Positions 1 through 16,390 of a stretch of DNA of 64,000 bases are shown piece after piece. A program made the translations under genes and the position numbers. Numbering within the stretch: the stretch's first letter is position 1; every line of letters starts with the position of its first letter. Source of the DNA: Paraburkholderia sp. Tr-20389 (lineage in GTDB: Bacteria; Pseudomonadota; Gammaproteobacteria; Burkholderiales; Burkholderiaceae). Under the pieces are notes generated by a model. It had not been told where the DNA came from. It made no database searches and saw only the letters and a program-made list of their open reading frames with translations. The stretch is from NCBI RefSeq assembly GCF_017104565.1, contig NZ_JAAGPD010000008.1, positions 186,001 through 250,000 on the forward strand. Direction: 5' to 3'.

Positions 1-1323
1 GACACACCCGTCTTCTTCATCTCGTCCGGCCGGTCTGCTGGTGTCGTCGGCGCCGGACGCCTCGGCGAAGCGCGCCACGATACCGACCTCGTCGTGTTCG
101 ACATGGGCGGCACCACGGCCTCGGCATCCCTGATTCATGACGGGCAGCTGGCACGCACGAATGAATACGAGTTCCGCGCAGGTATCTCGACGCCGAGCCG
201 CTTCATCAAGGCCGGCGGTTACATGATGCGCGTCCCGACGATCGACGTCGCCGAGGTGGGCAGCGGTGCGGGCTCGATTGCATGGATCGACGCAGGGGGT
301 CTGCTCAACGTGGGTCCGATTTCGGCTGGCGCCTATCCTGGTCCCGTCTGTTACGGCATCGGCGGCGAACGCCCGACCGTGACCGACGCGAACGCCGTAC
401 TTGGGTTCCTGCCGCAGAAGCTTGCCGGCGGCACAATGGAACTCAATCTGAAGGCTGCTCGCGGCGCAATTGAAGAAACGCTCGCCAAGCCGCTCGGGAT
501 CTCGATCGAACAGGCCGCGGTCGGCATCCGCGAAGTCGTCAACGTGAACATGGCGCGCACCATCAAGGCGGTGACGGTGGAACGCGGAGTCGATCCACGC
601 GACTTCACGCTGATGGCGTTCGGCGGTTCGGGTCCCGTTCACGCCTGCGATCTTGCCCGTACGCTGGAAATGAAGCGTGTCGTGTTCCCTGCGGCGCCCG
701 GCGTCTTCACGGCCATGGGGATGCTCGCAGGCGCAGTGGAGCGATACTTTGTCCGCCCGTTCCTCCATCCTCTCGACACGTTCGACCTCGACGCCCTTGC
801 CCAGCACATCACGTCCATGCGTGACGATGCCGCCGCGGCTCTTGCGGGTGAAGGCTATACGGCCGACCGTATCCAGTACGTGTTCGAACTCGATATGAGG
901 TTCCGCGGCCAGGACTATGAAATCCCCGTCGCGATTCCCGACACGCTGGACGAAGCAGGCCGCGAGTCGTTGCGGAAAGGCTTCCGGGAAGCCTACACGG
1001 CGATCTATGGCTATGCATCGAATGATGCGATCGAATGCGCGAACGTTCGACTGCTCGCACGCGGCATTGCAACCAAAACGCTTGATTTCCGCGACATTCG
1101 TAGCGCCGCTAACTCGACGGAAGTCCACAAGCGAAGCAATCGACAGGTCTATTTCAACCGCGAATCCGGCTGGGTCGATACGCCGATCGTCCCGCGCGCT
1201 CTGCTGGACAAGGAAATCGTCGGTCCCGTCATTCTCGAAAGCTCGGATACGACGATCGTCATTCCGCCAGGCTGGCGCGTCAGCACTGACAAGGTCGGCA
1301 GCGTCATCGCGTCGCTTGACTGA
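1..1323 (+). CDS. hyuA: Hydantoinase A / 5-oxoprolinase-type subunit (5' end outside window)
   Basis: The frame is open from the first base, so the N-terminus is missing; 440 residues are visible. It belongs to the HyuA/oxoprolinase family, whose members use ATP to open cyclic amides such as hydantoins or 5-oxoproline together with a HyuB partner. Visible support is the ATPase-like 'DLVVFDMGGTT' motif at residues 30-40, 'ERGVDPRDFTLMAFGGSGPVH' near residue 195 (a family hallmark), and the C-terminal 'GPVILESSDTTIVIPPGW' segment. HyuB follows after 18 bases, as is usual for this pair. The substrate cannot be told from sequence; N-methylhydantoin, oxoproline and acetone-carboxylase-like roles all occur in the family. 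Confidence 0.93.
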   Translation, partial: DTPVFFISSGRSAGVVGAGRLGEARHDTDLVVFDMGGTTASASLIHDGQLARTNEYEFRAGISTPSRFIKAGGYMMRVPTIDVAEVGSGAGSIAWIDAGGLLNVGPISAGAYPGPVCYGIGGERPTVTDANAVLGFLPQKLAGGTMELNLKAARGAIEETLAKPLGISIEQAAVGIREVVNVNMARTIKAVTVERGVDPRDFTLMAFGGSGPVHACDLARTLEMKRVVFPAAPGVFTAMGMLAGAVERYFVRPFLHPLDTFDLDALAQHITSMRDDAAAALAGEGYTADRIQYVFELDMRFRGQDYEIPVAIPDTLDEAGRESLRKGFREAYTAIYGYASNDAIECANVRLLARGIATKTLDFRDIRSAANSTEVHKRSNRQVYFNRESGWVDTPIVPRALLDKEIVGPVILESSDTTIVIPPGWRVSTDKVGSVIASLD

Positions 1324-1341: not shown

Positions 1342-3063
1342 ATGGCACAACGTAAAGTCGATCCCATTACCTTTGCTGTCGTCAAGAACGCGCTCGATAC
1401 GATCGTCGACGACATGGCATTTGCCGTGATGCGTACTGCACGCTCACCGATCATCCGCGACGTCCTCGACTATTCCGTGACGATGTGCGACGCGGCCGGC
1501 CGCATCCTCGCCCAGGCCAAGACCGTCGCACTGCACCTCGGTGCGGTGCCGGACGCCGTCGATGTCGTCATCAAAAAGTATTCGAACAATGTCCAACCCG
1601 GCGACGTGATCATCTTCAATGATCCGTACGAAGGCGGCATGCACTTGCCGGACATCTTCATGTTCAAGCCGATCTTCTTCGAAGACAGGCTGCAGGGCTT
1701 CTCCGTCGTCATTGCACACCATTGCGATGTGGGCGGCCGCGTTCCGGGCTCCAACGCTGCCGATTCCACCGAAATTTTCCAGGAAGGCCTGCGTATTCCG
1801 CCGACGAAGCTGTACACGCGAGGCGAAGCAAACGAGACCCTGGTGAACATCATCAAGAAGAATGTCCGTCTGCCTGACCTCGTCATGGGCGACCTGGACG
1901 CGCAACTGGCCACGTGCAACATCGGCGAGCGCGAGCTCGTGAAGATGATCCGCCGCTACGGCGAGGAAGAACTTCGCGAGTATTTCGACGAGCTGCTGGA
2001 CTATGGTGAGCGTCTGACCCGTCAGGCGATCGCGGCATGGCCCGACGGCGTCTACGAGTTCACGGACTATATCGACAACGACGGCTTTACCGCGGATGCC
2101 ATCCCGATCAAATGTGCGATCACGGTGAAGGGTTCGGGCGTGTCCGTCGACTTTGCCGGCTCTTCGCCGCAGGTGCGAGGTGCGATCAACTCGACGCTGT
2201 CGTTCGTGAAGTCGGCGACCTACCTGGCGATCCGCTGCGTTCTCGAAGCGGATGTCCCGAACAACGCCGGCGTCTATCGATGCATCGACATCACGGCGCC
2301 CGAAGGCTCCATTCTCAATCCGCGCCTGCCCGCTCCCGTCGCTGCTCGCGCGCTCACTGGCTACCGTGTGGTCGACACCGTGTTCGGCGCGCTTGCGCAA
2401 ATCGCGCCTACCAAGGTCATGGCCGCCGGAGAAGGCGGCAACACGGTGATCGCATTGAGCGGCTATGACAAGGAGGCCAGCGAGCCGTTCATTCTGGTGG
2501 ACATGATCAACGGCGCGTGGGGTGGACGCTTCAACAAGGACGGTATCGAGGGTGTGACCAATCCATCCCAGAACATGTCGAACATGCCGATCGAGACGCT
2601 CGAAGCGCGCTACCCGATCGTCATGGAAGCGTATGGCTTCGCTCAGGACTCGGGCGGAGCAGGCGAATATCGCGGCGGTCTCGGCCTCGTGCGCGAATAC
2701 CGGATTCTCGCCGAAGAAGTCGTCGCGCAGGTTCGTTCCGATCGCAGCGACCATGCCCCTTATGGTCTTTTTGGTGGATGCGCGGGCGCACCGTCGTCGA
2801 ACTATCTGAAGACCGACGGAGAAACCAAGCCGCTGCCGAGCAAGTTCACGATGACGCTGCATCGAGGCGCGACCGTCCGTCATGAACAGGCCGGCGGTGG
2901 TGGCTACGGCGATCCGGTGAAGCGCTCACTCGATCTGATCGAGGCGGACCTTGCCAATGGAAAGATCACACGCGACTACGCCCAGGCCTTCCACAAGGTT
3001 GCTTTCAAGGGCGAGCAGCTCGATCGCGACGCGTCCGCGAAACTACGCGGCACTCAGGTATGA
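1342..3063 (+). CDS. hyuB: Hydantoinase B / oxoprolinase family subunit
   Basis: The 573-residue product has the normal length for HyuB. It carries 'DPITFAVVKNALDTIVDDM' near the N-terminus, 'NDPYEGGMHLPD' near residue 95, and 'GGGGYGDP' near residue 520, all typical of the HyuB/acetone-carboxylase-alpha-like family. The start has a CGGAG ribosome site a few bases upstream. The product should pair with HyuA to form the ATP-dependent ring-opening enzyme in the cytoplasm. Its stop codon overlaps the next start in an ATGA arrangement, so the following gene is probably translationally coupled. Confidence 0.94.
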   Translation: MAQRKVDPITFAVVKNALDTIVDDMAFAVMRTARSPIIRDVLDYSVTMCDAAGRILAQAKTVALHLGAVPDAVDVVIKKYSNNVQPGDVIIFNDPYEGGMHLPDIFMFKPIFFEDRLQGFSVVIAHHCDVGGRVPGSNAADSTEIFQEGLRIPPTKLYTRGEANETLVNIIKKNVRLPDLVMGDLDAQLATCNIGERELVKMIRRYGEEELREYFDELLDYGERLTRQAIAAWPDGVYEFTDYIDNDGFTADAIPIKCAITVKGSGVSVDFAGSSPQVRGAINSTLSFVKSATYLAIRCVLEADVPNNAGVYRCIDITAPEGSILNPRLPAPVAARALTGYRVVDTVFGALAQIAPTKVMAAGEGGNTVIALSGYDKEASEPFILVDMINGAWGGRFNKDGIEGVTNPSQNMSNMPIETLEARYPIVMEAYGFAQDSGGAGEYRGGLGLVREYRILAEEVVAQVRSDRSDHAPYGLFGGCAGAPSSNYLKTDGETKPLPSKFTMTLHRGATVRHEQAGGGGYGDPVKRSLDLIEADLANGKITRDYAQAFHKVAFKGEQLDRDASAKLRGTQV

Positions 3064-3929
3064 CGGGGACTGACATGAACTATGATCTTTCGCGATTCGC
3101 GATCAACCAGATCACGACACCAAAATGGTCGATGCCTCAGGCCATCGAAGGGTACAGGCAACAGGGTGTGAACGGCATCGCCGTGTGGCGGCAATTCCTT
3201 GAAGACTATGGCGTCGCGCAGACCCGCAAGCATCTCCGCGAAGCGGAAATGTGGGTACCGTCTTTGTGCACGAGCGAATGGCTGAACGTTTCGGTTCACA
3301 GCAATATGAACGGAGCGATCGACACCAACCGTCGATTGCTCGACGCAGCTGCCGAAATCGGCGCGGGCTGCCTGATGATGGTCGTCGGCGGGATGCCGCT
3401 CGACAGCAAGGACATCGCAGGCCAGCGCGCGCGAGTTCGCGATGCGCTCTTCGCACTCGCGCCACACGCACGGGAAGTCGGCGTCAAGCTCGGTCTCGAA
3501 CCCCTGCACCCGATGTACGCGGGCGATCGCAGCGTCCTCAATTCGATCAGGGTCGCGAACGACCTGTGCGATGAACTCGGCGACGCAGCCGGCCTGGTGC
3601 CCGACGTGTACCACTGCTGGTGGGATCCTGTATTCGAGGCCGAGTTGAGACGTGCAGGCCCCGAACGGATCCTCACGTTCCACTACTGCGACTGGCTGGT
3701 ACCGACGCGCAATCTGCGCGATCGCGGCATGGTCGGCGATGGTGTCGTCGATATTCCGCGAATCAAGGGATGGCTCGATGACATCGGCTACACGGGCCCG
3801 TTCGAGCTTGAGATCTTTTCCGAACTCGACTGGTGGGAACGCCCGCCCGAGGAGACGACGCGTGTCGCTGTCGAGCGATGCGGCCCGTACGTTCAGACGC
3901 TGGGTTCCCGTTCACGTGGAGGTGCATGA
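3060..3929 (+). CDS. Sugar phosphate isomerase/epimerase-like TIM-barrel protein
   Basis: The 289-residue product belongs to the xylose-isomerase-like TIM-barrel family (AP endonuclease 2 superfamily). Metal-ligand segments are visible in the usual order: 'GLEPLHP' (Glu), 'PDVYHCWWDP' (Asp and His), 'FHYCDW' (His) and a final 'ELEIFSE' (Glu). Related enzymes isomerise hydroxypyruvate, epimerise keto-sugars or act on inositol intermediates. The start at 3060 overlaps the hyuB stop; an in-frame ATG at 3075 is possible. The stop overlaps the next ATG. Its place between hyuB and a RidA gene suggests it acts on a carbonyl intermediate of the same pathway; that role is inference. Confidence 0.88.
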   Translation: MTGTDMNYDLSRFAINQITTPKWSMPQAIEGYRQQGVNGIAVWRQFLEDYGVAQTRKHLREAEMWVPSLCTSEWLNVSVHSNMNGAIDTNRRLLDAAAEIGAGCLMMVVGGMPLDSKDIAGQRARVRDALFALAPHAREVGVKLGLEPLHPMYAGDRSVLNSIRVANDLCDELGDAAGLVPDVYHCWWDPVFEAELRRAGPERILTFHYCDWLVPTRNLRDRGMVGDGVVDIPRIKGWLDDIGYTGPFELEIFSELDWWERPPEETTRVAVERCGPYVQTLGSRSRGGA

Positions 3930-4402
3930 TGGGTGCAAGTCTTGAGCAACGGTTGCGCGAAGCCGGTATCGAGCTTCCGCCTCCCGTGACACCGGGCGCG
4001 AATTTCTCTGCGACAAAGCGCGTTGGAAACCTGCTCTATGTATCGGGTCAGGTTCCCGTCTCCGGAGGGGTTGATCGATACGTCGGCAAGCTTGGTACGG
4101 ATCTTTCTCTTGAGGACGGGCAGGCTGCTGCAAAGTTATGCGCGGTCAACATTCTGACTCAGGTAAATCAGGCGGTCGGCGGAGACTTTGATCAGGTTGT
4201 CGGTTGCGTCAGGCTTGGCGGATTCGTCAATGCCGCACCTGAATTCAAGGACCATCCGAAGGTTCTCAACGGTGCGTCGGATCTGATGATTGCAATCCTC
4301 GGTGACGCAGGCCGTCACACGCGTGCGGCAGTCGGATGCAATTCCCTGCCGCGTAACGTAGCCGTAGAGGTCGACGCCATTTTCGAACTGTCTACCCGAT
4401 AG
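3926..4402 (+). CDS. RidA/YjgF family protein (probable imine deaminase)
   Basis: The 158-residue product is a RidA-family protein, a trimeric enzyme type that hydrolyses reactive enamines and imines. Visible motifs are 'GNLLYVSGQVP' near residue 32 and the C-terminal 'LPRNVAVEVDAIFEL', whose Arg is the carboxylate-binding residue of active RidA proteins. The ATG at 3926 overlaps the preceding stop (ATGA) and follows GGAGG; a second in-frame ATG at 3929 is equally spaced. The frame stays open upstream to 3833, but that part lies inside the previous gene. Its presence implies that the pathway produces an imine or enamine. Confidence 0.92.
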   Translation: MMGASLEQRLREAGIELPPPVTPGANFSATKRVGNLLYVSGQVPVSGGVDRYVGKLGTDLSLEDGQAAAKLCAVNILTQVNQAVGGDFDQVVGCVRLGGFVNAAPEFKDHPKVLNGASDLMIAILGDAGRHTRAAVGCNSLPRNVAVEVDAIFELSTR

Positions 4403-4520: not shown

Positions 4521-5930
4521 ATGAAGAAAATCCGAAATTCAGATGAAGTCCTCTCACAAGGCGACCTGGACTCAAGGCGCGTTGTGCTTGAGATCGCAGA
4601 CCGGACACTGGAGAAGCTCGACAGCTATCAGCGGATCCGGAACATCATGCGCATGGAAGGCAGCGTGTTGCACATCGGGACGCGCTCATGGGATCTATCG
4701 CGCAAGCGCAACGTCTACCTGATCGGTGCCGGCAAGGCTTGCAATCATATGGCGATGGCGGTGGATCACGTGCTGGGCGACCGCCTGACCCAGGGCATCG
4801 CCATCGTGAAGATCCACGAAGAATCAGACCGGTTCAACAGGACGGAAGTGTACGTTGGCGGGCATCCTCTACCAAACGAAGAAGGCCATCGGGCATCGAA
4901 GAGGATCATCGAGATCGTCGACCAGGCCGGACCCGAGGATCTGTTCATCGCGGTGATCAGCGGCGGCAGTTCGGCGCTCATGTCGTGTCCTATCGACGGC
5001 ATCAGTCTGCAGGATGAGATCGATACGACGGACGTGCTGCTTAAATCGGGTGCGGGCATTTACGAAATCAATGCGGTGCGCCGCCATATCTCGGCCTTGA
5101 ACGGCGGGATGCTGGCAAAGCGCATCCAGGCCGTGGGCGCCGAACTGATCGGCTTCGGTATCAGCGATGCCGTAGGCTCGCCCGCCACCGGCGATATCGC
5201 CGTGCCCTATTCAGCTTACAAGAGCACACCGATCGGCCCCGACATGACGACGCTGGACGACGCTCGCGCGACGATCATCAATCGCAACGTCGCCGATCGG
5301 CTGCCGAAAAGCGTTGTCGACTATCTGATGAACGCCGGACCTGAGTCAGAGACGCCCAAAGCGTTTCCCGACAACACATACTTCCTTCTCAACACGCTGC
5401 CCGACTCGTGCATTTACGCGAAGCACGTGTGTGAAGAGATGGGCATTCCCGCAGTGATCGTGTCGTCCTTCCTCGAAGGTGAAAGCCGTGACGCCGGCAC
5501 CTTTTTCGCATCGATCGCGCGAGAAATCCAGACCTATGGAAATCCGGTCAAGGCCCCGTGTGTGTTGCTCAGTTCCGGCGAGGTAACGACGCTTATCGAG
5601 GACAACAGCGTGATCCGCGGGCACGGCGGTCCTGGCCAGGAAATGGCCGTCAGTTTCGCCATCACGGCGGCGAAGACCAAAGGTGCGTGCCTGTTGTCCA
5701 TCGACAGCGAAGGCACGGACGGCACCGCCAAAGTTGCGGGCGGCATCACCGATTCCACCAGTCTGAAGGCCGCGTCGGACAAAGGCATCAGCCTGTATCA
5801 GGCCCTGCGCGAGCACAGCTGCTTTGAAGCGCTCGAAGCGATCCGCTCTACCGTCTTTACGGGTAACACAGGCACCAATCTGTGTGACCTGAACATCCTT
5901 TACGTTCCGGCATTGAAGGAGGGTGAGTAA
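4521..5930 (+). CDS. Glycerate 2-kinase-type protein (DUF4147/MOFRL family)
   Basis: The 469-residue product matches the two-domain glycerate-2-kinase family (N-terminal DUF4147, C-terminal MOFRL). Visible signatures are 'VYLIGAGKACNHMA' near residue 66, 'GGHPLPNEEG', 'AVISGGSSALMSCP' near residue 145, 'NAVRRHIS' and, in the MOFRL part, 'GHGGPGQEMAVSFAI' and 'DSEGTDGTAKVAGG'. Family members phosphorylate D-glycerate to 2-phosphoglycerate. The next gene begins directly after this stop and encodes an enolase-family protein, which would fit 2-phosphoglycerate as a shared intermediate. Because that enolase lacks key residues, the kinase may instead act on another hydroxy acid. Confidence 0.88.
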   Translation: MKKIRNSDEVLSQGDLDSRRVVLEIADRTLEKLDSYQRIRNIMRMEGSVLHIGTRSWDLSRKRNVYLIGAGKACNHMAMAVDHVLGDRLTQGIAIVKIHEESDRFNRTEVYVGGHPLPNEEGHRASKRIIEIVDQAGPEDLFIAVISGGSSALMSCPIDGISLQDEIDTTDVLLKSGAGIYEINAVRRHISALNGGMLAKRIQAVGAELIGFGISDAVGSPATGDIAVPYSAYKSTPIGPDMTTLDDARATIINRNVADRLPKSVVDYLMNAGPESETPKAFPDNTYFLLNTLPDSCIYAKHVCEEMGIPAVIVSSFLEGESRDAGTFFASIAREIQTYGNPVKAPCVLLSSGEVTTLIEDNSVIRGHGGPGQEMAVSFAITAAKTKGACLLSIDSEGTDGTAKVAGGITDSTSLKAASDKGISLYQALREHSCFEALEAIRSTVFTGNTGTNLCDLNILYVPALKEGE

Positions 5931-5931
5931 C

Positions 5932-7206
5932 ATGGAAGACCGGATCGCATCGGTTCGGGCACAGCAGATCATAGACTGCAAGTGCCGCCCAGCTGTGGAA
6001 GTGGAGATTCGCACCGAAGGCGGTGCAATCGGTCTCGGCGCGGCGCCCACGGGTACATCGGTAGGCATGCACGAGTCGTTCGTCCTGCGCGACGGCAACC
6101 CGTCCACATACAAGGGGCTCAGTGTTCACAAGGCCGTCGACAACGCGGTGAATGTCATCGGACCGGCACTGATCGGCATGAACGTGTTCGATCAGCGCGC
6201 CATCGATGACAAGATGATTGCTCTGGATGGCACGCCGGACAAGCGACGCTTGGGCGGCAACACGATCTATTCGGTATCCATTGCGGCGTTTCGGGCGGCA
6301 GCGGATGCGCTTTCGATTCCTCTTTACAAGCACATTGCAGGTCGCGACATCTGGACGGTACCTGTTCCCTGCTTCAACGTCGTCAACGGCGGACGATACG
6401 AGGGGTTCACTCAGGCGTTCAACGAGTTTCTGATCGTGCCGTACGGAACCGGTAGTGTCGATACATCGATCGAAATGGCCGTCGCGGTGTTCCAGAAACT
6501 CGCCGACGTACTGACCGCGTATCTGGGACACAAGCCACAGGTGGCCAGTTCCTATGGCTATGCCGCGCCATCCGACGATCCCGAGGTCGTTCTGACGCTG
6601 ATGCAGAAAGCGATCGATGACTGTGGTTATACCGGCAAGATCGCCTTCGCGCTCGACTGTGCTTCAAGCGAGATGTACGACAAGGAATCACGCACCTACC
6701 TGTTGAAGGGTAAGCAGGTGTCATCCGACGAACTGATCGACTATGCGCAACTCCTGACTGAAAAGTTCGATCTGGTTTTCATCGAGGATCTGCTCGATGA
6801 AAACGACTGGACGGGTTACATCAAAGCGGTAAAGCAGCTTACCCGCACCATCGTTCTGGGCGACGACCTCACGGTGACTAACCGCGAACTCCTCCGTAAA
6901 GCACACGAAACGCGCGCCGTCGATGGCTTCATCCTCAAGCCCAATCAGGTGGGGACGATCACCGAAGCAATGGATGCCTACCGCTATGCCACCGCTCACG
7001 GAATGATTGCGGTCCCGTCGGGCCGCTCGGGTGGCGTGGTCGACGATGTCGTGATGGATTTCTCGGTGGGTCTGGAGGTTCCGTTCCAGAAGAACGGCGC
7101 GCCGCGCTCAGGAGAGCGCATTGAAAAGCTCAATTTCCTGATGCGGGCAAACGCTCGAAGCCCAGGTTGCCGCCTTTACGACATCGCTCCACTTCTCAGA
7201 TTCTGA
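5932..7206 (+). CDS. Enolase-family protein lacking canonical catalytic residues
   Basis: The 424-residue product aligns along its length with bacterial enolase. Conserved positions include the metal ligands in 'ALDCASSE' (Asp242), 'FIEDLLDE' (Glu285) and 'LGDDLTVTN' (Asp311), the base in 'ILKPNQVGT' (Lys336), 'GRSGG' (Arg365) and Lys387. The catalytic 'GDEGG' loop is replaced by 'SSYGY' (Tyr208 at the Glu position), the substrate His of 'NGGEHA' is Tyr156, and 'SHRSGETED' has become 'SGRSGGVVD'. ATG 5932 has AAGGAGGG eight bases before it and is preferred over an in-frame GTG at 5923. It is probably a specialised enolase-superfamily enzyme and not the housekeeping enolase. Confidence 0.85.
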   Translation: MEDRIASVRAQQIIDCKCRPAVEVEIRTEGGAIGLGAAPTGTSVGMHESFVLRDGNPSTYKGLSVHKAVDNAVNVIGPALIGMNVFDQRAIDDKMIALDGTPDKRRLGGNTIYSVSIAAFRAAADALSIPLYKHIAGRDIWTVPVPCFNVVNGGRYEGFTQAFNEFLIVPYGTGSVDTSIEMAVAVFQKLADVLTAYLGHKPQVASSYGYAAPSDDPEVVLTLMQKAIDDCGYTGKIAFALDCASSEMYDKESRTYLLKGKQVSSDELIDYAQLLTEKFDLVFIEDLLDENDWTGYIKAVKQLTRTIVLGDDLTVTNRELLRKAHETRAVDGFILKPNQVGTITEAMDAYRYATAHGMIAVPSGRSGGVVDDVVMDFSVGLEVPFQKNGAPRSGERIEKLNFLMRANARSPGCRLYDIAPLLRF

Positions 7207-7270: not shown

Positions 7271-8389
7271 ATGTACCCGAAAATTGACTTCGTCTATCTT
7301 TCAGAGCCCGACATGATCGAAGCCGGTGTGCTGGATGCCGCGCGTTGCGTGTCCGTCTGCGAGGAAACCTTTAGCCTTCTCGGCAAAGGCGATTATCTGA
7401 TGGGGGGGCCCAATCACAACAACCACGGCATGAATATCGTCTTCCCGAAAGAAACCCGATTCCCCAACATGCCCGTGGCGGGCCCGGACCGCCGCTTTGC
7501 GGCCATGCCGGGATATCTGGGCGGGCGGTTCGATATCTGCGGAAACAAATGGTACGGATCGAACCACGCCAATGCGGAGAAGGGATTGCCGCGTTCGATC
7601 CTGACCATGATGCTCAACGACAAAGACACAGGCGCACCGCTGGCCCTGATGTCGGCCAATCTCCTGAGCGCCGCACGCACGGGCGCGGTGCCGGGCGTCG
7701 CCGCGAAGCACCTCGCGAACAGGGATGCGCAAACCGTTTCGGTCATCGGTTGTGGTCCGATCAACAAGGCGTGTTTCACTGCGATCATGACCCAGCTCGG
7801 CTCGGTGAAGAAGGTCATCTGCTTCGACGTCTTCCTCGACAAGGCGAATGAATTCGCCGGCTGGGTCGAGAAAACGTACGGCATCCAGGCCATCGGCGTC
7901 GATGAGGCCGAAAAGGGCTTCCGCGATGCGGACGTCATCACGATCGCAGCGTCACGCCTGAAGCCGCTTTACTTCAAGGACGAATGGATCAAGGAAGGCG
8001 CCACGCTACTGGTGTCCGGTCCGTTCAATACCGACGAGTCCTTCCTGACGAACTGCAAGATCGTCTTCGATCACACGCCTTTGCAAGAAGCGTATGTTGA
8101 AGACGCTATCGCGTCCGGCAACAAGGACGCGTACTACGGCGGGGTGATCGGCGGCCCGTTCTACCGCCTGATCGACGCAGGGAAACTGCCGGCACTGACG
8201 GATTCGACCGGTCTGGGTGACGTCGTGAACGGTGACAAGCCGGGCCGTGAAAACGCGAAAGAGCGCGTGATCTTCATTGCCTGCGGGATGGCTGTCTTCG
8301 ATATCAGCTGGGGCTTCGAGATGTACCAGATCGCGCAACAGAAGGGCATCGGCCAGTCGTTGAATCTGTGGGAAAAGCCCAGCATGTGA
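7271..8389 (+). CDS. Ornithine cyclodeaminase / mu-crystallin family protein
   Basis: The 372-residue product is an NAD(P)-binding member of the ornithine cyclodeaminase/mu-crystallin family, which includes cyclodeaminases, ketimine (pyrroline-2-carboxylate) reductases and amino-acid dehydrogenases. Visible are a Lys at position 93, 'SAARTGAVPGVAAKHLA' (133-149) and the Rossmann turn 'VSVIGCGPIN' (156-165). It has a clear ribosome site (AAAGG) before ATG 7271. Some close relatives are annotated as tyramine oxidase subunit B, so the exact reaction is open. With proline-racemase-family genes in the same island, reduction of a cyclic imine is a reasonable guess, but it is inference only. Confidence 0.85.
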   Translation: MYPKIDFVYLSEPDMIEAGVLDAARCVSVCEETFSLLGKGDYLMGGPNHNNHGMNIVFPKETRFPNMPVAGPDRRFAAMPGYLGGRFDICGNKWYGSNHANAEKGLPRSILTMMLNDKDTGAPLALMSANLLSAARTGAVPGVAAKHLANRDAQTVSVIGCGPINKACFTAIMTQLGSVKKVICFDVFLDKANEFAGWVEKTYGIQAIGVDEAEKGFRDADVITIAASRLKPLYFKDEWIKEGATLLVSGPFNTDESFLTNCKIVFDHTPLQEAYVEDAIASGNKDAYYGGVIGGPFYRLIDAGKLPALTDSTGLGDVVNGDKPGRENAKERVIFIACGMAVFDISWGFEMYQIAQQKGIGQSLNLWEKPSM

Positions 8390-8493
8390 TGGAACTCGCC
8401 GAGATGACGTGCGGGCTTACCGTGGGCTCACTTTCTCGGATCTGGCCGCGCGTCGTCTCGATTGGTTTGCCTGCATGTGTCTGCTAACGCAGC

Positions 8494-8529
8494 CCGCAAT
8501 CCGCGCGGTCGGTCCTGCGCGGATTGCGG
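8494..8529 (+). terminator. Strong 13-bp inverted repeat before the MFS gene
   Basis: A perfect 13-bp stem (8494-8506 with 8517-8529) encloses a 10-base loop. It lies 105 bases after the cyclodeaminase-like stop and 90 bases before the MFS start. No T-run follows, so it may be a factor-dependent terminator, an attenuator or a regulator site. It also argues against starting the MFS gene at the in-frame codon at 8409. Confidence 0.55.
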
Positions 8530-8618
8530 CTGCTTCAGTCGAAACGGAAGTCGCAGCAGGACCACTACCCATCACGTTTCGACTCACTAACGACCGCTAT
8601 CCTTATCGCATCCACTCC

Positions 8619-9950
8619 ATGTCAATCGACCACGCAAATCAGACAGGCACGTTCGCGCTCGGCGAGGCCAATCACGATGGTCTGTATCGAAAGGTCACCG
8701 TACGCCTGATCACCCTGTTCTTTCTCTGCTACTTTGCCGCCTATCTGGACCGGATCAACATAGGTCTGGCAAAGCTTCAGATGCTTGACGCGCTTGGCTT
8801 CAGCGACAGCATCTACGGCCTTGGAGCGGGACTCTTTTTCGCTGGATACATTGCGTTCGAGATACCGAGCAATCTGATCCTGCAAAAGGTCGGCGCCAAA
8901 GTCTGGATCGCGCGCGTGATGATCACATGGGGAATCCTGTCGGGCGCGACGATGCTGGTGAAAACGCCGGTCCAGTTTTACGTCGTCCGCTTCCTGCTCG
9001 GTGTCGCCGAGGCGGGATTTGTCCCGGGTGTCCTGCTGTATCTCTCACAGTGGTTTCCCTACAATCGACGGGCTCGCGTCGTGGCCTTGTTCATGATCGG
9101 GATTCCGCTGTCGAGCCTGATCGGCAACCCGATCTCCGGCTGGCTCATGAATGTCATGGATGGCGTGCGCGGACTCGGTGGCTGGCAGTGGCTATTCCTT
9201 CTGGAAGCGCTGCCCCCGGTAGTGCTCGGCGGATTCGTCCTCTGGTGGCTTCCAAACAGCATTGAAAAAACCCCATGGCTCGATACCGGCGAGAAACAAA
9301 CGCTGCTTGCAAGCCTCGATGACCACGTGGGCGGAGAGAGACTGTCGTCGTTGCCCCACGTGTTCACTGACAAAAGGCTATGGATCCTCGGCCTTATCGA
9401 CGTATGCATCATGATCGGCGTATACGCCACCAGCTTCTGGCTACCGTCGATACTTCGCGATACAGGCGTACGTGATCCATTCGAGATCGGCCTGTGGATG
9501 GGAATTCCCAACGCGGCGGCCGTGATCAGCATGCTGCTCTGTGGATGGAGTTCCGATCGCGCGAGCGAGCGTCGATGGCATATGGCCGTTCCGTGCCTCG
9601 TGGCAGGCTGCGGGCTGTTTCTGGCGGCAGTCATGCCGCACACCACGGGTATGACGGTACTACTGTTCTCGCTGATCAACGCGGGTGCCGCTGCGACTAT
9701 ACCGGTGATCTGGACGCTACCGCCGACCTTTCTCAAGGGAACCGGGGCAGCCGCGGGCATCGCCATGATCACCTCGCTCGCAAACCTGGGCGGATTTATC
9801 GGCACCTCTGTTCTCGGTTGGCTGAGAGACCAGTTTCACTCCCAGAGTGCGGGGCTTTACGGGTTCGGAGTGTGCATGCTGATCGGATGCATCCTGGCCC
9901 TTTCGTATCCGGCAGACAAGGTCGAATCATCGCTTCGCGAGCCAGCCTGA
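8619..9950 (+). CDS. MFS transporter, anion:cation symporter (phthalate/tartrate permease) type
   Basis: The 443-residue product is an inner-membrane major facilitator with about 12 predicted helices. 'FFLCYFAAYLDRINIGLAKL' in helix 1 and the 'AEAGFVPGVLLYLSQWF' segment are typical of the ACS family, which carries organic anions such as tartrate, phthalate, glucarate and galactonate. I chose ATG 8619 because it gives the usual N-terminus and length; the frame is open from 8409, but that extension crosses a strong hairpin and looks non-coding. Lying between the cyclodeaminase-like and dehydratase genes, it probably imports the substrate or an acidic intermediate. Confidence 0.9.
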   Translation: MSIDHANQTGTFALGEANHDGLYRKVTVRLITLFFLCYFAAYLDRINIGLAKLQMLDALGFSDSIYGLGAGLFFAGYIAFEIPSNLILQKVGAKVWIARVMITWGILSGATMLVKTPVQFYVVRFLLGVAEAGFVPGVLLYLSQWFPYNRRARVVALFMIGIPLSSLIGNPISGWLMNVMDGVRGLGGWQWLFLLEALPPVVLGGFVLWWLPNSIEKTPWLDTGEKQTLLASLDDHVGGERLSSLPHVFTDKRLWILGLIDVCIMIGVYATSFWLPSILRDTGVRDPFEIGLWMGIPNAAAVISMLLCGWSSDRASERRWHMAVPCLVAGCGLFLAAVMPHTTGMTVLLFSLINAGAAATIPVIWTLPPTFLKGTGAAAGIAMITSLANLGGFIGTSVLGWLRDQFHSQSAGLYGFGVCMLIGCILALSYPADKVESSLREPA

Positions 9951-10068
9951 TCCGGTGCGAATACGCATCCAGACGAGCGAATGAGTTCTTTCATCTTATT
10001 CACGGGATTTTCTTCTTGGGTACAGGGCGCTGTTCGCCCCGTTGTTTCCGATATTTGATGAGGTCAGC

Positions 10069-11796
10069 ATGACTAGCATAGTGCGGTCGCTTCGCAGTGA
10101 AGCATGGTTCAAACGCATCGATAACACGGGCTTCGAACACCGAACTCATTTGAAGGCCCGCGGTGCCCCTCCCGACATGTTCGAAGGGCGTCCCGTCATT
10201 GGGATCGCCAATTCAGCGTCTGATCTGGTTCCATGCAACGCACATCTAACGGGCATCGCCGACGCGGTCGTCAAGGGCGTGCTCGAGGCGGGAGGATATC
10301 CGTTGGTATTTCCGACCATGTCCATCGGTGACATGTTGATGCGGCCAAGCGGCATGCTCTTCCGAAACCTGATGAGCATGGAACTCGAGGCAACACTTCG
10401 CGCAAATCCGCTAGACGCCGTGGTCTTACTGTCCGGATGTGACAACACGGCGCCGGCCTACATGATGGGTGCTGCCAGCATCGACCTGCCGACCATTCTC
10501 GTGCATGGCGGCGCGATGATCAGCGGACGCGTCGGAGCCCGGACCGTGGGTTCCGGTACCGACATCTTCAGAATGCATGCCGACTATCGCGGCGGCAGGA
10601 TGTCTAAGGCAGCGTTTCTCGACGCCGAATACGGCATGTCGCGCAGCAATGGACACTGCAACACGATGGGTACGGCATCGACGATGGGTTCGATTGCCGA
10701 AGCCCTTGGCCTCAGTCTGACCGGTACTGCGGCTATTCCGGCTGTAGACAGCCGGCGCTACAGCTCTTCGCAACTGGCCGGCCGCCGGATTGTCGAAATG
10801 GTCCGCGAGGATTTGACCTTTTCAAAAGTCGTCGACCGTCGCGCACTCGAAAACGCGATCCGCGTCAACGCCGCGCTCGGCGGGAGCACAAACGCGATCA
10901 TTCACCTGATCGCGCTCGCCGGACGCGTCGGCATCGAACTGACGCTCGATGATTTCGAAAAGAACTGCGCCGGCATTCCGCTGATGGCGAACGTGCTGCC
11001 GAACGGCAAGTTTCTCGCGGAGGAATTTTACGGCGCTGGCGGCGTACGTGCACTCATGGGCGAACTGCGAAGCAAACTGCACCTCGACGCATTCACTGTC
11101 TCGGGAACGACCGTTGGCGAAAACCTCGAAGGCATCCAGTCGACTGATACGGCTGTGATCTCACGCCTCGACGAGCCGGTCAAGCCACAAAACGCATTGC
11201 GCATTCTGCGCGGCAATCTCGCGCCGGGTGGCGCGGTGATCAAGCCATCCGCGGCCAGCCCACGGCTGCTCAAGCATACGGGACGTGCGGTTGTTTTCAA
11301 CGACGTCGAAGATCTGGATGCGCGGATCGACGATCCGAACCTCGACGTCGACGCCGACAGCGTCCTCGTACTGAAGGGAATCGGGCCGCGGGGCTATCCC
11401 GGCATGCCCGAACTGGGCAATATCCGGCTGCCGGCTAAATTGCTAGCTGCGGGTGTCACCGATATGGTGCGAATTTCGGATGGACGAATGAGCGGAACGG
11501 CTTATGGAACTGTCGTGTTGCACGTTTCGCCCGAATCGTCCATCGGCGGACCGCTTGCGCTCGTCCAGGACGGTGACTTGATTTCCCTCGACGTCGAACA
11601 CGGTGTCGTGGAGTTGCAGGTTCCGGATCAGGAACTGGAGCGCCGGCGCACTGAACTCCGACTGTCGCCGGCATCCAGCGCTCGCGGTTATGAAAGGCTG
11701 TTCATTGAGCACGTGCTGCAGGCGGACAAGGGGCTCGACTTCGACTTTCTCGTGGGCAGCAGCGGTAACGCCGCGCCGCTGCGACGTCCGTTCTAG
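10069..11796 (+). CDS. IlvD/Edd family dehydratase with Asn at the carbamate-Lys position
   Basis: The 575-residue product belongs to the IlvD/Edd Fe-S dehydratase family (dihydroxy-acid, arabonate, xylonate and related dehydratases). The three cluster cysteines are present: Cys56 in 'LVPCNAHL', Cys124 in 'LSGCDNTAPA' and Cys197 in 'NGHCNTMG'. The catalytic Ser segment 'DGRMSGTAYG' is also present. The residue after the metal Asp125 is Asn126, where the well-studied members have a carbamylated Lys ('GCDKT'). ATG 10069 is preferred over a start at 10042, which adds nine residues. It probably dehydrates a sugar acid or hydroxy acid of this island; it is unlikely to be the housekeeping IlvD. Confidence 0.9.
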   Translation: MTSIVRSLRSEAWFKRIDNTGFEHRTHLKARGAPPDMFEGRPVIGIANSASDLVPCNAHLTGIADAVVKGVLEAGGYPLVFPTMSIGDMLMRPSGMLFRNLMSMELEATLRANPLDAVVLLSGCDNTAPAYMMGAASIDLPTILVHGGAMISGRVGARTVGSGTDIFRMHADYRGGRMSKAAFLDAEYGMSRSNGHCNTMGTASTMGSIAEALGLSLTGTAAIPAVDSRRYSSSQLAGRRIVEMVREDLTFSKVVDRRALENAIRVNAALGGSTNAIIHLIALAGRVGIELTLDDFEKNCAGIPLMANVLPNGKFLAEEFYGAGGVRALMGELRSKLHLDAFTVSGTTVGENLEGIQSTDTAVISRLDEPVKPQNALRILRGNLAPGGAVIKPSAASPRLLKHTGRAVVFNDVEDLDARIDDPNLDVDADSVLVLKGIGPRGYPGMPELGNIRLPAKLLAAGVTDMVRISDGRMSGTAYGTVVLHVSPESSIGGPLALVQDGDLISLDVEHGVVELQVPDQELERRRTELRLSPASSARGYERLFIEHVLQADKGLDFDFLVGSSGNAAPLRRPF

Positions 11797-12028: not shown

Positions 12029-12092
12029 AAATAACCGGAACCGGGAAGGCATGAACTTTTGCCAGTACCGCACGAAATGATTGGGACGAACC

Positions 12093-12836
12093 ATGGCAAA
12101 GGCATCAACTGAAACTCAGCCGGTGAAAGAAACGGGCGCGGTCCGTGTCTACGGAATACTGCGCGACGAGATTCTTAGAATGCAGCTCGCTCCGGGCACG
12201 CCGCTCGATGAAATTGGTCTCGCGGAAAGGTTCAACCTCTCCCGCTCGCCGATACGGGAAGCGCTGGTGCGCCTCTCGGGCGATGGTCTGGTTCAGATCC
12301 TGCCGAATCGGAGCACGGTAGTGACGCCCATGGATTACCGGCGTATCCCGGAGTTTCTCGATGCCCTCGATCTGCTCCAACGGGTGACTACGCGCCTCGC
12401 GGCTTTACACCGGACGGCCTCGGATCTCGCAGTGATACGTGAAAAGCAGAAGGCATACGAGAAGGCAGTCGCCGCCAGTATCAAGACGTACGACAGTCTA
12501 TCGATGATCGACAAAAATTATGAGTTTCATATGGCCATCGCCAAGGCGGGGCGCAACATTTACTTTGCCGATCTGTATCGTCGACTGCTGGATGAAGGAA
12601 GACGAATGCTTCATCTTCACTTTGAGTACGAAGCGCTGGGTTCAGAGTTGAGCGTAGAAAAGATGGCGGCCGGTCACGCCGATATCGTCAACGCGATTGA
12701 GGCGCGCGATGCAGACCGTGCAGAGGAATACGCCCATGACCATGCGATGCAGTTTCGAGGGCGCTTTATGAATTTCCTGAATCGCAATCTGACTGCTGGA
12801 ATGCCCTTGAACATTCAGTTGGCTGAGACCGAATAG
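12093..12836 (+). CDS. GntR family regulator, FadR/FCD type
   Basis: The 247-residue product has an N-terminal winged helix ('VYGILRDEILRMQLAPGTPLDE', then 'LAERFNLSRSPIREALVRL', about residues 15-60) and a C-terminal helical FCD ligand-binding domain with a conserved 'FH' around residue 144. FCD regulators usually sense organic or amino acids and repress the neighbouring catabolic genes. ATG 12093 follows a weak purine-rich site; an in-frame TTG at 12081 is less likely. It lies between the plus-strand enzymes and the minus-strand operon. The inverted repeat in its own promoter recurs before the ABC importer operon and, weaker, before the tautomerase gene, so it probably controls all three. 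Confidence 0.92.
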   Translation: MAKASTETQPVKETGAVRVYGILRDEILRMQLAPGTPLDEIGLAERFNLSRSPIREALVRLSGDGLVQILPNRSTVVTPMDYRRIPEFLDALDLLQRVTTRLAALHRTASDLAVIREKQKAYEKAVAASIKTYDSLSMIDKNYEFHMAIAKAGRNIYFADLYRRLLDEGRRMLHLHFEYEALGSELSVEKMAAGHADIVNAIEARDADRAEEYAHDHAMQFRGRFMNFLNRNLTAGMPLNIQLAETE

Positions 12837-12995: not shown

Positions 12996-13877
12996 TCAGG
13001 CCGCGGGCTTCATCATCTCAAGCACCTCATCGGGGAAGAGCAGCGTTCGCACGACGGAATCGTCGCGACGCAACATGTTGCCAGCCTCCGGAAAGCCGAA
13101 GAAATCGAAAAAGAAAGGCGTCTGGAGGATCAGCATGTCGAAGCCCGGCTGGACCGCGTTACCCCTTGCCATTGCAGCGCGTAGCAATGGGGTGGGCTGA
13201 TTCTTCATCAGGATGTCGCAAACCTGCGCAGAACGATCAAGCCGTTCGGGCGGCACGGGCAGGGGATCGTCTGACTTCAGTCCCAACGGAGAGGCGTTGA
13301 TCACCAGGTCGAAACCGGCGGGATCGTTGGAAGGCGGCACCATCGTCTGGACGCCATACTGTGCCTCGATTGAATGAGCGAGTTGGTCGGCCCTGGTCGT
13401 ATCTGGATCGAACATAGCCAGCACCGACGGCCCCGCAGAGGCGAGCGCAGTCGCAATAGCCGAGGCGGCGCCGCCCGCGCCGATCAGCAGAATTCGCTTG
13501 CCGCGATATGTCATCGCATACCGCTCAAGGGACTTGACGAAGCCCAGCCCATCGAACAGATCGCCCTCGAGTTCCCCGGCGGCATTTTTGCGAATCGCGT
13601 TGACAGCATTCGCGGTTGCCGCAGCCTTTGAACAATGATCGACAAGCGCCGCTGCACCCGGCTTGTGCGGGATCGACAGCACGATTCCGGCCGTAGTCGG
13701 CGAACGGAACAGCGCTCGCACAACGTCCGACAGGTCCGATGCCGCGACCTGCAGCGGCACCATGACGGCGTCGATACCGCACAAAGGCAGTACCTCGTTG
13801 AATACTTCAGGCGTACGAACCTGCGAGATTGGATCAGCAATCGTATAGAAAACGCGAGTCTTTCCAGTGATAGTCAT
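12996..13877 (-). CDS. Shikimate/quinate dehydrogenase-like protein (AroE family)
   Basis: The 293-residue product has the AroE fold. Visible are 'ADPISQVRTPEVFNEVL' (substrate loop, 15-31), the catalytic Lys in 'SIPHKPG' (Lys72), 'NAVNAIR' (91-96), the catalytic Asp in 'DLFDGLGF' (Asp109) and the Rossmann turn 'LIGAGGAASA'. The substrate loop is of the 'DPI.QV..P' type found in catabolic paralogues, not in biosynthetic AroE. ATG 13877 is preceded by GGAG; the frame is open to 13916. It is the last gene of the minus-strand operon, after the racemases, and probably oxidises or reduces a cyclic hydroxy acid of that pathway. Confidence 0.87.
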   Translation of the reverse strand: MTITGKTRVFYTIADPISQVRTPEVFNEVLPLCGIDAVMVPLQVAASDLSDVVRALFRSPTTAGIVLSIPHKPGAAALVDHCSKAAATANAVNAIRKNAAGELEGDLFDGLGFVKSLERYAMTYRGKRILLIGAGGAASAIATALASAGPSVLAMFDPDTTRADQLAHSIEAQYGVQTMVPPSNDPAGFDLVINASPLGLKSDDPLPVPPERLDRSAQVCDILMKNQPTPLLRAAMARGNAVQPGFDMLILQTPFFFDFFGFPEAGNMLRRDDSVVRTLLFPDEVLEMMKPAA

Positions 13878-13953
13878 ATCGTTTGTACTCCAAAATTTCA
13901 TACGTCGTTCCGACACCCCGTCGATGAGATGTCATATAAACCCCGGTAACCTC

Positions 13954-14985
13954 TCACTTCGAGCCGATTCCTTCGCCCCATGTATCGCTGAGCATGAATC
14001 CCGCCGCGAGGGGATCATCCGGGTCGACGCCCAGTTGCTGAATGCCATAGATCCAGGCTCGTCCCTGAACGCGCGGCAAGACTGCCGCTTTAGCGCCGAC
14101 TTCGGTCGTGCCGAGCATCTCGACCTGGAACTCCCCGCCGATTGTCGATCGCGAAGTCAAGACGCTTCCGACGCGTACCTGACCACGAGCTGCGAGCGTG
14201 GCCAGGTTTGCCGAGCTGCCGGTACCGCACGGGGAGCGGTCCACGCGGCCCGGCGGCAGTGTCGTGCAGGTCTGGTAGATATCGTCGCTGACGCGATTAC
14301 GGAACATCACGTACGCAATCTCGTTGATCTGCGGATACAGCGGATGTTCGATATGGACCTGCCCGTTGATGATGTCCTTCAATTGCACGCCACGCTCGGC
14401 CAGTTGTCGTGCGTTTTCTGGCGCAATGGTCAACCCAACCTGGTCGACGTCGACAAGGGCGTAATAAACCCCGCCGAATGCAATGTCTGCGCGAATTCTC
14501 CCGAACTCCGGCGTGTCGACCTCGAAATCGAGGTATTCGACGAATGCCGGGACCATGTCCAGCGAAACGCTGATGCAGCGTCCGTCGCGGCACGTCGCCC
14601 GAGCCGTCACGAGTCCCGCGGGCGTGTCGAGCACCACCGTCGTCTGCGGCTCCTGCATCTGCACCATGCCCAGTTCCAGCAGCGCGGTAACGACGCAGAT
14701 CGAATTGCTGCCTGACATCGGATGCGCCTTGTCCGACTGCAACACGAAGAAACCGGCATCCGCTTCGGGACGGGTCGGCGGTAGCAGCAGGTTCACCGAC
14801 ATCTGCAGACAACCCCGAGGCTCGAGGACAACCAGTCGCCGCAAGCTGTCGTCGACTTCGTTGATATAGTTCATCTTGTCGAGCATCGTCTTACCGGGAA
14901 TATCAATGACACCCCCTGTGATGACCTTGCCGATTTCACCTTCGCAGTGTACGTCGACGAGTTGCAGCGTCTTCTTCCAGCGCAT
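13954..14985 (-). CDS. Proline racemase family protein with Ser/Cys catalytic pair
   Basis: The 343-residue product belongs to the proline racemase/hydroxyproline epimerase superfamily. The first catalytic position, usually Cys in 'MCGH', is Ser91 in 'HPMSGSN'; the second is Cys253 in '[11 protein letters not shown]'. Ser/Cys members are known and include hydroxyproline-epimerase-type enzymes, while a Cys/Thr pair marks trans-3-hydroxyproline dehydratases. The start has AGGTAGG upstream. It is the second family member in the operon; the other (16387-17403) has Cys/Cys, so the two probably act on different isomers or substrates. Confidence 0.9.
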   Translation of the reverse strand: MRWKKTLQLVDVHCEGEIGKVITGGVIDIPGKTMLDKMNYINEVDDSLRRLVVLEPRGCLQMSVNLLLPPTRPEADAGFFVLQSDKAHPMSGSNSICVVTALLELGMVQMQEPQTTVVLDTPAGLVTARATCRDGRCISVSLDMVPAFVEYLDFEVDTPEFGRIRADIAFGGVYYALVDVDQVGLTIAPENARQLAERGVQLKDIINGQVHIEHPLYPQINEIAYVMFRNRVSDDIYQTCTTLPPGRVDRSPCGTGSSANLATLAARGQVRVGSVLTSRSTIGGEFQVEMLGTTEVGAKAAVLPRVQGRAWIYGIQQLGVDPDDPLAAGFMLSDTWGEGIGSK

Positions 14986-15106: not shown

Positions 15107-16390
15107 TCATGCATAACGGTAAGCGCTAAACGGCGTCATATTGAGTTCCGGCGTGCGTGCACTCACCAGATCAGCGACGAGTCGTCCCGTGGTCGCACCG
15201 AGCGTCAAACCCAATTGCCCGTGTCCGAAGGCCATCACGACATTTTCGAGTCGTCGCGAACGATCAATAATCGGCTTCGTGTCCGGCAGGAATGGGCGAT
15301 AACCCACTCCAAACTCGACGCCATCGGTACGAAGTTGCGGCAAGATCCGCCTCGCTTTCTCAAGGATGATTTCCGCACGCCGGAAATTCGGCTGCGCTCC
15401 CCGGCCGGCGATTTCAATCGTTCCGCCAATCTGCAGTCCGCGCGTCATGGGAGTAAAACAGAACCCGCCATCGGCATAGATGATGGAATGTCTGATCTCG
15501 ACACCAGAATCCGGCAAAAGCGCCTGATAGCCTGCAATGCCTTCGAGCGGAACGCGTACGCCAAGCGCATCGAAAAAGCGACGCGACCCGGTGCCGGCAG
15601 CCACCACAACGTGATCGGCAGCAACAGCGTCGCCGTCGCCGAGCGTCACGCCACACGCTCGTCCACCCTGCTCATCGATGCGCCTGGCCTCCGAGCGGAT
15701 ACGACGGCCACCCCGCGCAAGAAAACTCTCGGTCAACGCCGCAACGAAGCCTTCTGTGTCGCCCACCGAGCGCCAGTCCGGAAACAGCAGGCCATGCGCA
15801 AAGCGGCCTTTCAATGCAGGCTCCAGATCGCCGATCTCGGCGGGCGAGAGGCGCTGTGCCTTGAATCCGAGTGATGCGCGCAGTTCGAGATGCGGCTGTT
15901 CGCGCTCAAAGTAGGCAGAGTCGTTGAAGACCTCGATGATCGGTCGCTCACCCATCAGCGCCTTGTCACTGCACTCACTCAGCAGAGGTGCGTAGTCGGC
16001 GTAGATGTTTCGCGTGAGCGATGACAGCGATTGCGCGATATCCACGATCTTCGATTGCCGCGCGCAGGACATGAACCGAAAGAACCAGGGCAAAATGCCG
16101 GGCAACGCCCCCGGCCGCATGGCGAGTGGGCCATTCTGATCCATGAGCCACCCTGGCACTTTCATCAGAATTCCAGGCTTCGACAGCGGAATGATTTCAC
16201 TGACCGCCATCTGCCCACAACTCCACTTCGCCGTGCTATCGCCGGGCGCCGCAGGATCGACCAGCGTGACGGCAAAACCATTTCGCTGGAGATAAAGCGC
16301 ACAACACACCCCTACAATGCCGCCGCCGATCACAACGGTTCGCGCGACGGCCGCGTTGGAAACCGCTCCCTGGACAGGTACGGCGCTCAC
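15107..16390 (-). CDS. FAD-dependent D-amino acid dehydrogenase/oxidase (DadA-like)
   Basis: The 427-residue product is a DAO-family flavoprotein with the dinucleotide fold '[16 protein letters not shown]' at residues 19-34, '[10 protein letters not shown]' in the middle, and the C-terminal FAD-contact region '[20 protein letters not shown]'. Such enzymes oxidise D-amino acids or D-hydroxyproline and pass electrons to the respiratory chain. I chose GTG 16390, whose last bases overlap the upstream racemase stop (GTGA); the frame is open to 16471. Coupling to a proline-racemase-family gene is the classic arrangement for hydroxyproline use, where the epimerase makes the D-isomer that this enzyme oxidises. 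Confidence 0.9.

What the first reader, a model, noticed from the sequence alone, without database searches (positions are those of the whole stretch)
5932..7206. Enolase paralogue that has lost the GDEGG catalytic Glu and the substrate His but kept the metal site
Compared from memory with E. coli enolase, the three metal ligands, the Lys base, the Arg and the second Lys are kept. The 'GDEGG' acid loop is 'SSYGY', the active-site His is Tyr, and 'DSRGNPT' is 'DCKCRPA'. The gene follows a glycerate-2-kinase-type gene with almost no spacing. A decayed gene would not keep the metal site, so a new reaction on a phosphorylated hydroxy acid is possible. This pair is the best candidate for undescribed chemistry in the window.
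Basis: partly seen in the sequence, partly recalled or inferred. Interest (0 to 1): 0.78.

Follow-up and report, generated by a model that had tools for sequence, protein, structure and literature searches.

The report
Repurposed enolase in a three-gene pathway
A relative of the glycolysis enzyme enolase, found beside a kinase and an amino-acid-type dehydrogenase, has lost the parts that remove water but kept the rest of its active site, so it probably carries out a different, undescribed step in breaking down a small nitrogen-containing acid.

Summary
The protein at 5932-7206 is an intact enolase fold. In 44 family sequences (the window's and 43 relatives, 61-88% identical to it) the Mg ligands, Lys base, second Lys, Arg and Mg-II Ser are kept, while the GDEGG acid Glu and both active-site His are gone in all 44. 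Purifying selection is strong (dN/dS 0.06-0.12 in nine pairs), and the genome has a normal enolase too. It belongs to a fixed trio: DUF4147/MOFRL kinase, enolase-like protein, ornithine-cyclodeaminase-family (OCD) dehydrogenase (43, 43 and 42 of 43 loci; same 12 of 398 genomes, OCD in 11). Glutamate dehydrogenase follows in 6 of 43 loci, pyruvate kinase in 2. Best reading (0.42): the kinase makes a 2-phospho acid, the enolase-like enzyme removes the alpha proton and expels a C3 group other than hydroxide, most likely an amine, giving PEP or an analogue; OCD handles the nitrogen part. Substrate unknown; nothing measured. Ten literature searches found no description. New variant of a known kind.

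The parts
5932..7206 (+). enolase-like protein: Mg ligands D242/E285/D311, base K336, K387, R365/S366, S43 kept; general-acid Glu -> S207, His -> Y156, His -> G364
   Evidence: AlphaFold2 model pLDDT 93.2, pTM 0.90
4521..5930 (+). DUF4147/MOFRL (glycerate-2-kinase-type) kinase, ends one base before the enolase-like gene
   Evidence: upstream of the enolase-like gene in 43 of 43 relatives
7271..8389 (+). ornithine cyclodeaminase / mu-crystallin family dehydrogenase (NCBIfam PRK06199 'tyramine oxidase subunit B', 504.8 bits, cut-off 362)
   Evidence: downstream in 42 of 43 relatives
1..1323 (+). hydantoinase/oxoprolinase subunit A; the gene starts upstream of the window
1342..3063 (+). hydantoinase/oxoprolinase subunit B
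3060..3929 (+). xylose-isomerase-like TIM barrel protein
3914..4402 (+). YjgF/Rid family protein (start uncertain; the ORF opens at 3833)
8409..9950 (+). MFS transporter
10042..11796 (+). IlvD/EDD sugar-acid-type dehydratase
   Evidence: scanned from 10069
12081..12836 (+). GntR-type regulator (named by eye; not run against a library)
12996..13916 (-). shikimate-dehydrogenase-like protein
13954..14985 (-). proline racemase family protein (best model trans-3-hydroxyproline dehydratase, below its cut-off)
15107..16471 (-). D-amino-acid-dehydrogenase-like FAD protein
16390..17403 (-). 4-hydroxyproline epimerase (PRK13971, above cut-off)

Best explanation
It is a dedicated 'phospho-lyase' that evolved from enolase. 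(1) The kinase phosphorylates the 2-hydroxyl of a small alpha-hydroxy acid (inferred from family and position). (2) The enolase-like enzyme binds that 2-phospho acid as enolase does, with two Mg ions, R365, K387 and S43; K336 removes the C2 proton to give the enolate (residues shown, chemistry inferred). (3) Instead of expelling hydroxide with a Glu acid, it expels a C3 substituent that leaves without that acid. The most likely leaving group is an amine (ammonium or an amino acid), and the product is PEP or a PEP-like enol phosphate (inferred). (4) The OCD-family dehydrogenase, with glutamate dehydrogenase in some copies, processes the nitrogen part, and pyruvate kinase or pyruvate carboxylase in a few copies processes the PEP/pyruvate part (inferred). 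Candidate substrates are isoserine (3-amino-2-hydroxypropanoate) or an N-substituted isoserine such as N-(2-carboxy-2-hydroxyethyl)glutamate.
For: Binding and proton-removal residues kept and the acid Glu and both His lost in 44 of 44 (S366 in 41). Mtb enolase E204A (the same Glu) is reported non-functional (PMC10619443, section 8 read); E211 is described as the general acid that helps hydroxide leave (PMC4450660, passages). Purifying selection, dN/dS 0.059-0.121 in 9 of 9 pairs tried. One clade, 100/100. Kinase upstream in 43 of 43, OCD downstream in 42 of 43 loci; strong matches to enolase-like and kinase in the same 12 of 398 genomes, to OCD in 11 of those and no other. Glutamate dehydrogenase 132-944 bases after OCD, same strand, in 6 of 43; pyruvate kinase 86 and 172 bases after OCD in 2 of 43; same-strand pyruvate carboxylase in 1 of 43. 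The best-scoring solved chain of the OCD protein is 4m54, 'putative ornithine cyclodeaminase' (132.6 bits; recalled to be SbnB), then alanine dehydrogenase (103.6); SbnB is also its second-best NCBIfam model, below cut-off. LarA-like hydroxy-acid racemase in 2 and a TRAP transporter in 3 of the 3 Planctomycetota loci. Own genome has a normal enolase.
Against: No reaction was measured, and nothing in the sequence names the leaving group. Neighbours beyond the trio differ widely (amino-acid, branched-chain and sugar-type ABC, MFS, TRAP), so substrate inference from them is weak. Pyruvate kinase is absent from 41 and glutamate dehydrogenase from 37 of 43 loci (some flanks are short). A Salmonella plasmid cluster with an enolase paralogue, a DUF4147 kinase and pyruvate kinase keeps the acid Glu, so a linked pyruvate kinase does not itself point to a leaving group other than water. 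Planctomycetota copies have Ala in place of S366 (3 of 44). TIGR01060 (enolase equivalog) is passed: 360.6 bits against 300. The LarA-like protein is below every NCBIfam cut-off. Isoserine is not a well documented growth substrate to my knowledge (one search, two papers listed).
Confidence: 0.42

Rival explanations
1. It still eliminates water, but from a different 2-phospho-3-hydroxy acid, with Tyr156, Tyr208 or a metal-bound water replacing the Glu acid.
For: Two Tyr, Y156 (43 of 44) and Y208 (44 of 44), stand in the changed loops. A sugar-acid-type dehydratase (IlvD) in 3 of 43 loci and in the window, and a kinase of the glycerate family, fit polyhydroxy acids.
Against: Both His and the Glu were lost together; Tyr is a weak acid at neutral pH (general knowledge); the nitrogen-type partners (OCD in 42 of 43, GDH in 6 of 43) are unexplained; one copy (L008) has Cys at the Tyr156 place.
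Confidence: 0.25
2. It uses the kept proton-removal half for a reaction without a C3 leaving group, such as epimerisation at C2 or decarboxylation of a 2-phospho acid, or it expels phosphate.
For: K336, K387 and E165 are kept in 44 of 44, and other enolase-superfamily members epimerise (recalled).
Against: Residues that hold the retained phosphate in enolase are kept (R365 44, S366 41 of 44); pyruvate kinase beside 2 of 43 copies suggests an enol phosphate product.
Confidence: 0.2
3. It is an inactive or moonlighting protein kept for structure or regulation.
For: Three catalytic residues are gone.
Against: Metal ligands and base are invariant, dN/dS is 0.06-0.12, and it is tightly co-inherited with two enzymes.
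Confidence: 0.08
4. It is an ordinary glycolytic enolase with sequence drift.
For: Passes the TIGR01060 cut-off.
Against: The genome has a canonical enolase; the general acid whose Ala variant is reported non-functional is missing.
Confidence: 0.04

Closest known systems
Enolase (phosphopyruvate hydratase, EC 4.2.1.11)
   Same: Both Pfam domains; fold (Foldseek query TM 0.91-0.94 and 34-38% identity in the 50 rows shown); Mg ligands, Lys base, second Lys, Arg, Mg-II Ser
   Different: No general-acid Glu, neither active-site His, changed DSRGNPT and SGETED motifs; in a kinase-OCD operon
Methylaspartate ammonia-lyase (enolase superfamily)
   Same: Proposed type of chemistry: alpha-proton removal then loss of ammonia (recalled)
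   Different: Different subgroup; its Pfam families were not among the hits at E <= 0.001
Carboxyphosphonoenolpyruvate synthase (phosphinothricin pathway), a divergent enolase homologue (recalled)
   Same: An enolase homologue recruited to another reaction (recalled)
   Different: Biosynthetic phosphonate context (recalled); no sequence compared here; one search found no held paper
SbnB and other OCD-family dehydrogenases (for the third gene)
   Same: 4m54 (recalled as SbnB) is the best-scoring solved chain
   Different: 163.1 bits against the SbnB cut-off of 326.9
Other kinase-linked enolase paralogues ('type B': Salmonella India plasmid, Paraburkholderia caribensis, Haladaptatus, Halorubrum)
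   Same: Enolase paralogue beside or near a DUF4147 kinase
   Different: Keep the Glu acid but have His->Leu and His->Glu; outside this family in the tree

Membership tests
Enolase EC 4.2.1.11 | Enolase_N plus Enolase_C fold | tested here: met
Enolase EC 4.2.1.11 | three carboxylate Mg ligands, Lys base, second Lys, Arg | tested here: met
   44 of 44
Enolase EC 4.2.1.11 | general-acid Glu of GDEGG | tested here: not met
   0 of 44 have Glu at that column, 41 of 41 canonical do
Enolase EC 4.2.1.11 | active-site His pair (H159 and H373, yeast numbering recalled) | tested here: not met
   0 of 44 at either column, 41 of 41 canonical at both
Enolase EC 4.2.1.11 | NCBIfam equivalog score | tested here: met
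   360.6 bits, cut-off 300; a score, not a function test
Enolase EC 4.2.1.11 | dehydrates 2-phosphoglycerate | not testable with these tools
   needs an assay
Methylaspartate ammonia-lyase | its own Pfam domains | tested here: not met
   only Enolase_C, Enolase_N and MR_MLE_C hit at E <= 0.001
Mandelate racemase/muconate lactonising group | MR_MLE_C as the best domain | tested here: not met
   35.5 bits (over its cut-off of 29.4), far below Enolase_C 210.7
Carboxyphosphonoenolpyruvate synthase | sequence or context match | not tested
   no sequence in hand
Glycerate 2-kinase (MOFRL), for the kinase | DUF4147 plus MOFRL domains | tested here: met
Glycerate 2-kinase (MOFRL), for the kinase | NCBIfam glycerate 2-kinase equivalog cut-offs | tested here: not met
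   178.8 against 550 and 138.3 against 670
SbnB, for the third gene | TIGR03944 cut-off | tested here: not met
   163.1 against 326.9

The most novel reading that the evidence does not exclude
A PLP-free route that turns a 3-amino-2-hydroxy acid, perhaps released from an N-substituted glutamate by the OCD-family dehydrogenase acting as SbnB does, into PEP: kinase, then an enolase-derived ammonia- or amine-lyase. It would be a functional switch inside the true enolases, a group usually treated as having one function (recalled).
Probability: 0.25. Interest if true: 0.85.

Novelty: new variant of a known kind. Interest (0 to 1): 0.62.

Why it matters
True enolases are treated as one-function enzymes (recalled), and databases label by that rule: this family passes the enolase cut-off, and some plasmid copies are annotated 'enolase' (2 of the 9 close records; one 'enolase C-terminal domain-like', the other six without a gene listed there). 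A conserved subfamily, scattered over distant bacteria, with part of the active site replaced suggests that the enolase scaffold has been recruited for a second reaction. It also gives a testable three-enzyme pathway and an annotation trap.

Tried and rejected
Chance or decay: rejected by conservation and dN/dS. Plasmid enolases: the three I fetched with DUF190/fluoride-type neighbours and one Priestia copy have canonical motifs; the other listed distant hits were not examined except Haladaptatus, Halorubrum, Salmonella India and Arthrobacter. Sulfolactate (sulfite as leaving group): considered; I noticed no sulfite-handling neighbour but did not search for one. 3-Hydroxyaspartate (phosphoenol-oxaloacetate product): possible, not separable here from isoserine. 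Hydroxyproline catabolism: 4-hydroxyproline epimerase, D-amino-acid-dehydrogenase-like and DapA-like genes lie near some copies (11, 21 and 8 of 43), none as constant as the trio. Phosphate elimination: less likely, because phosphate-site residues are kept. Residue distances in the model could not be measured. No fold other than enolases was sought in the structure lists, which one family fills. Literature: ten searches. Searches returned nothing; two papers, one (the Mtb enolase paper), one unrelated paper, 57 papers of which 15 were listed; only two papers were opened. The library holds only CC0, CC BY and CC BY-SA papers, so absence there is not absence from print.

Full report

Active site. 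I compared 44 family sequences (the window protein, 38 loci, 5 plasmid loci) with 41 canonical enolases (40, mostly Firmicutes, plus the window genome's own). Kept in 44 of 44: S43, E165, D242, E285, D311, K336, R365, K387; S366 in 41 (Ala in the three Planctomycetota). Changed: acid Glu to Ser (43) or Ala (1, L003); first His to Tyr (43) or Cys (1, L008); second His to Gly (44); DSR to DCK (44); the neighbouring Gly to Tyr208 (44); both Glu of SGETE to Gly and Val (44). The alignment over these motifs has no gaps. Acidic residues that are new and shared by at least 38 of 39 sequences are E181, D216, D372 and D417; none is in the aligned Glu column, though a spatial replacement was not measured. 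In published work the same Glu in M. tuberculosis enolase (E204) is needed: all Ala variants tested except S42A, so E204A among them, are reported non-functional (PMC10619443, passages and section 8 read), and Glu211 is described as the general acid for hydroxide loss (PMC4450660, passages read). So the family lacks the known way of expelling water but keeps the half that binds a 2-phospho acid and removes its C2 proton.

Real and selected. dN/dS against nine relatives is 0.059-0.121 (nine pairs that I chose, compared without gaps, synonymous sites near saturation). In a 47-row tree the 22 family rows form one clade (100/100); its branch is 1.84 changes per column below a midpoint root, 2.77 across it. 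The family is rare: 12 of 398 genomes of the window's own family at E <= 1e-120 and 1 of 369 of its class, the one being the window's own. Members lie in Burkholderiaceae, Rhizobium/Mesorhizobium/Shinella-type Alphaproteobacteria, Pantoea and Erwinia, Pseudomonas, a Moraxellaceae bin and three Planctomycetota bins. The scan needs a short pattern match and kept the best 80 of 156. Horizontal spread is an inference from the high identity across classes.

The unit is a trio. In 43 relatives the DUF4147/MOFRL kinase lies directly upstream in 43 (gap about -4 to +70 bases) and the OCD-family gene directly downstream in 42 (about 25-76 bases); the exception is L026 (gaps from tblastn ends, some contigs short). 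In 398 genomes the strong kinase match and the enolase-like match occur in the same 12, and the strong OCD match in 11 of those 12 and no other; in the twelfth the OCD match is in two pieces (L088), and in one genome the kinase match is partial and on another contig (G491). On plasmids the nine records with a close copy of each gene are the same nine; one further record, Paraburkholderia sabiae, has a close OCD gene (76%) and no kinase or enolase-like match of 60% or more.

What the neighbours say. Of 43 loci: glutamate dehydrogenase after OCD in 6 (L025, L029, L030, L037, L040, L082); pyruvate kinase after OCD in 2 (L005, L032); same-strand pyruvate carboxylase in 1 (L082); a weak opposite-strand one in L017 is not counted. 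The three Planctomycetota loci have a TRAP transporter, two of them a LarA-like racemase (the third contig ends early); L038 has a weaker, opposite-strand TRAP hit. The LarA-like protein is below every NCBIfam cut-off. D-amino-acid-dehydrogenase-like (21), TIM (19), proline racemase family (17), hydantoinase B (16) and Rid (8) genes are common but not constant (tblastn hits at 35% or more anywhere in the locus, so some may be other family members or belong to other operons). Two distant OCD relatives (44%) that I looked at sit with Rid and FAD oxidoreductase genes, one of them beside 5-oxoprolinase genes. This points to a nitrogen-containing alpha-hydroxy acid whose carbon ends as PEP or pyruvate, but not to one substrate.

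Mechanism. Most likely: the kinase makes the 2-phospho acid; K336 and two Mg ions form the enolate; a C3 amine leaves without the Glu acid; PEP or an analogue results; OCD and sometimes GDH deal with the nitrogen part. Shown: sequence, conservation, fold, linkage. Inferred: every reaction. Confidence 0.42. A water elimination with a new acid (0.25) and a reaction without a C3 leaving group (0.20) remain open.

Compared with what is known. By score it would be filed as enolase (TIGR01060, 360.6 against 300), but two defining features were tested and not met, so I do not file it as phosphopyruvate hydratase. It works like enolase in its first half. A second set of kinase-linked enolase paralogues, on a Salmonella plasmid, in Paraburkholderia caribensis and in two haloarchaea, keeps the Glu but has Leu and Glu in place of the two His. 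They fall outside this family; the two pairs join each other at 100/95, but the tree program warns that this join of long branches may be false. So kinase-linked, non-standard enolases may be a wider pattern. Ten searches of an open-licence library found no description of the module.

Noticed in passing
L103 (Salmonella India plasmid), L110 (Paraburkholderia caribensis), L102 (Haladaptatus), L108 (Halorubrum): Other enolase paralogues beside or near a DUF4147 kinase keep the acid Glu but have His->Leu and His->Glu; the Salmonella cluster also has a pyruvate kinase, the P. caribensis one FAD oxidoreductase and RidA genes.
   Followed up: partly
L099:12001-13122: Paraburkholderia sabiae Mimosa-nodule plasmid has the OCD gene (76%) without a close kinase or enolase-like gene, near a PLP lyase-like gene, a 'putative hydro-lyase', biotin-carboxylase-type genes and dsdA.
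   Followed up: partly
L100:10681-12001: Rhizobium jaguaris plasmid: the enolase-like match is in two pieces and no gene is listed there between the kinase and OCD genes; probably a broken copy.
   Followed up: no
L105, L106, L107: Plasmid enolases with canonical motifs lie near DUF190 genes (all three), chloride channel genes (L105, L106) and fluoride exporter CrcB (L106, L107).
   Followed up: partly
window 7271-8389: The NCBIfam name 'tyramine oxidase subunit B' for this OCD-family protein finds no paper by phrase, and nothing in its neighbourhood here suggests tyramine.
   Followed up: partly
L082:17583-18275: A DMSP-lyase-family cupin gene follows the trio on an Agrobacterium cucumeris plasmid, with hydantoinase, glutamate dehydrogenase and pyruvate carboxylase genes.
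   Followed up: no
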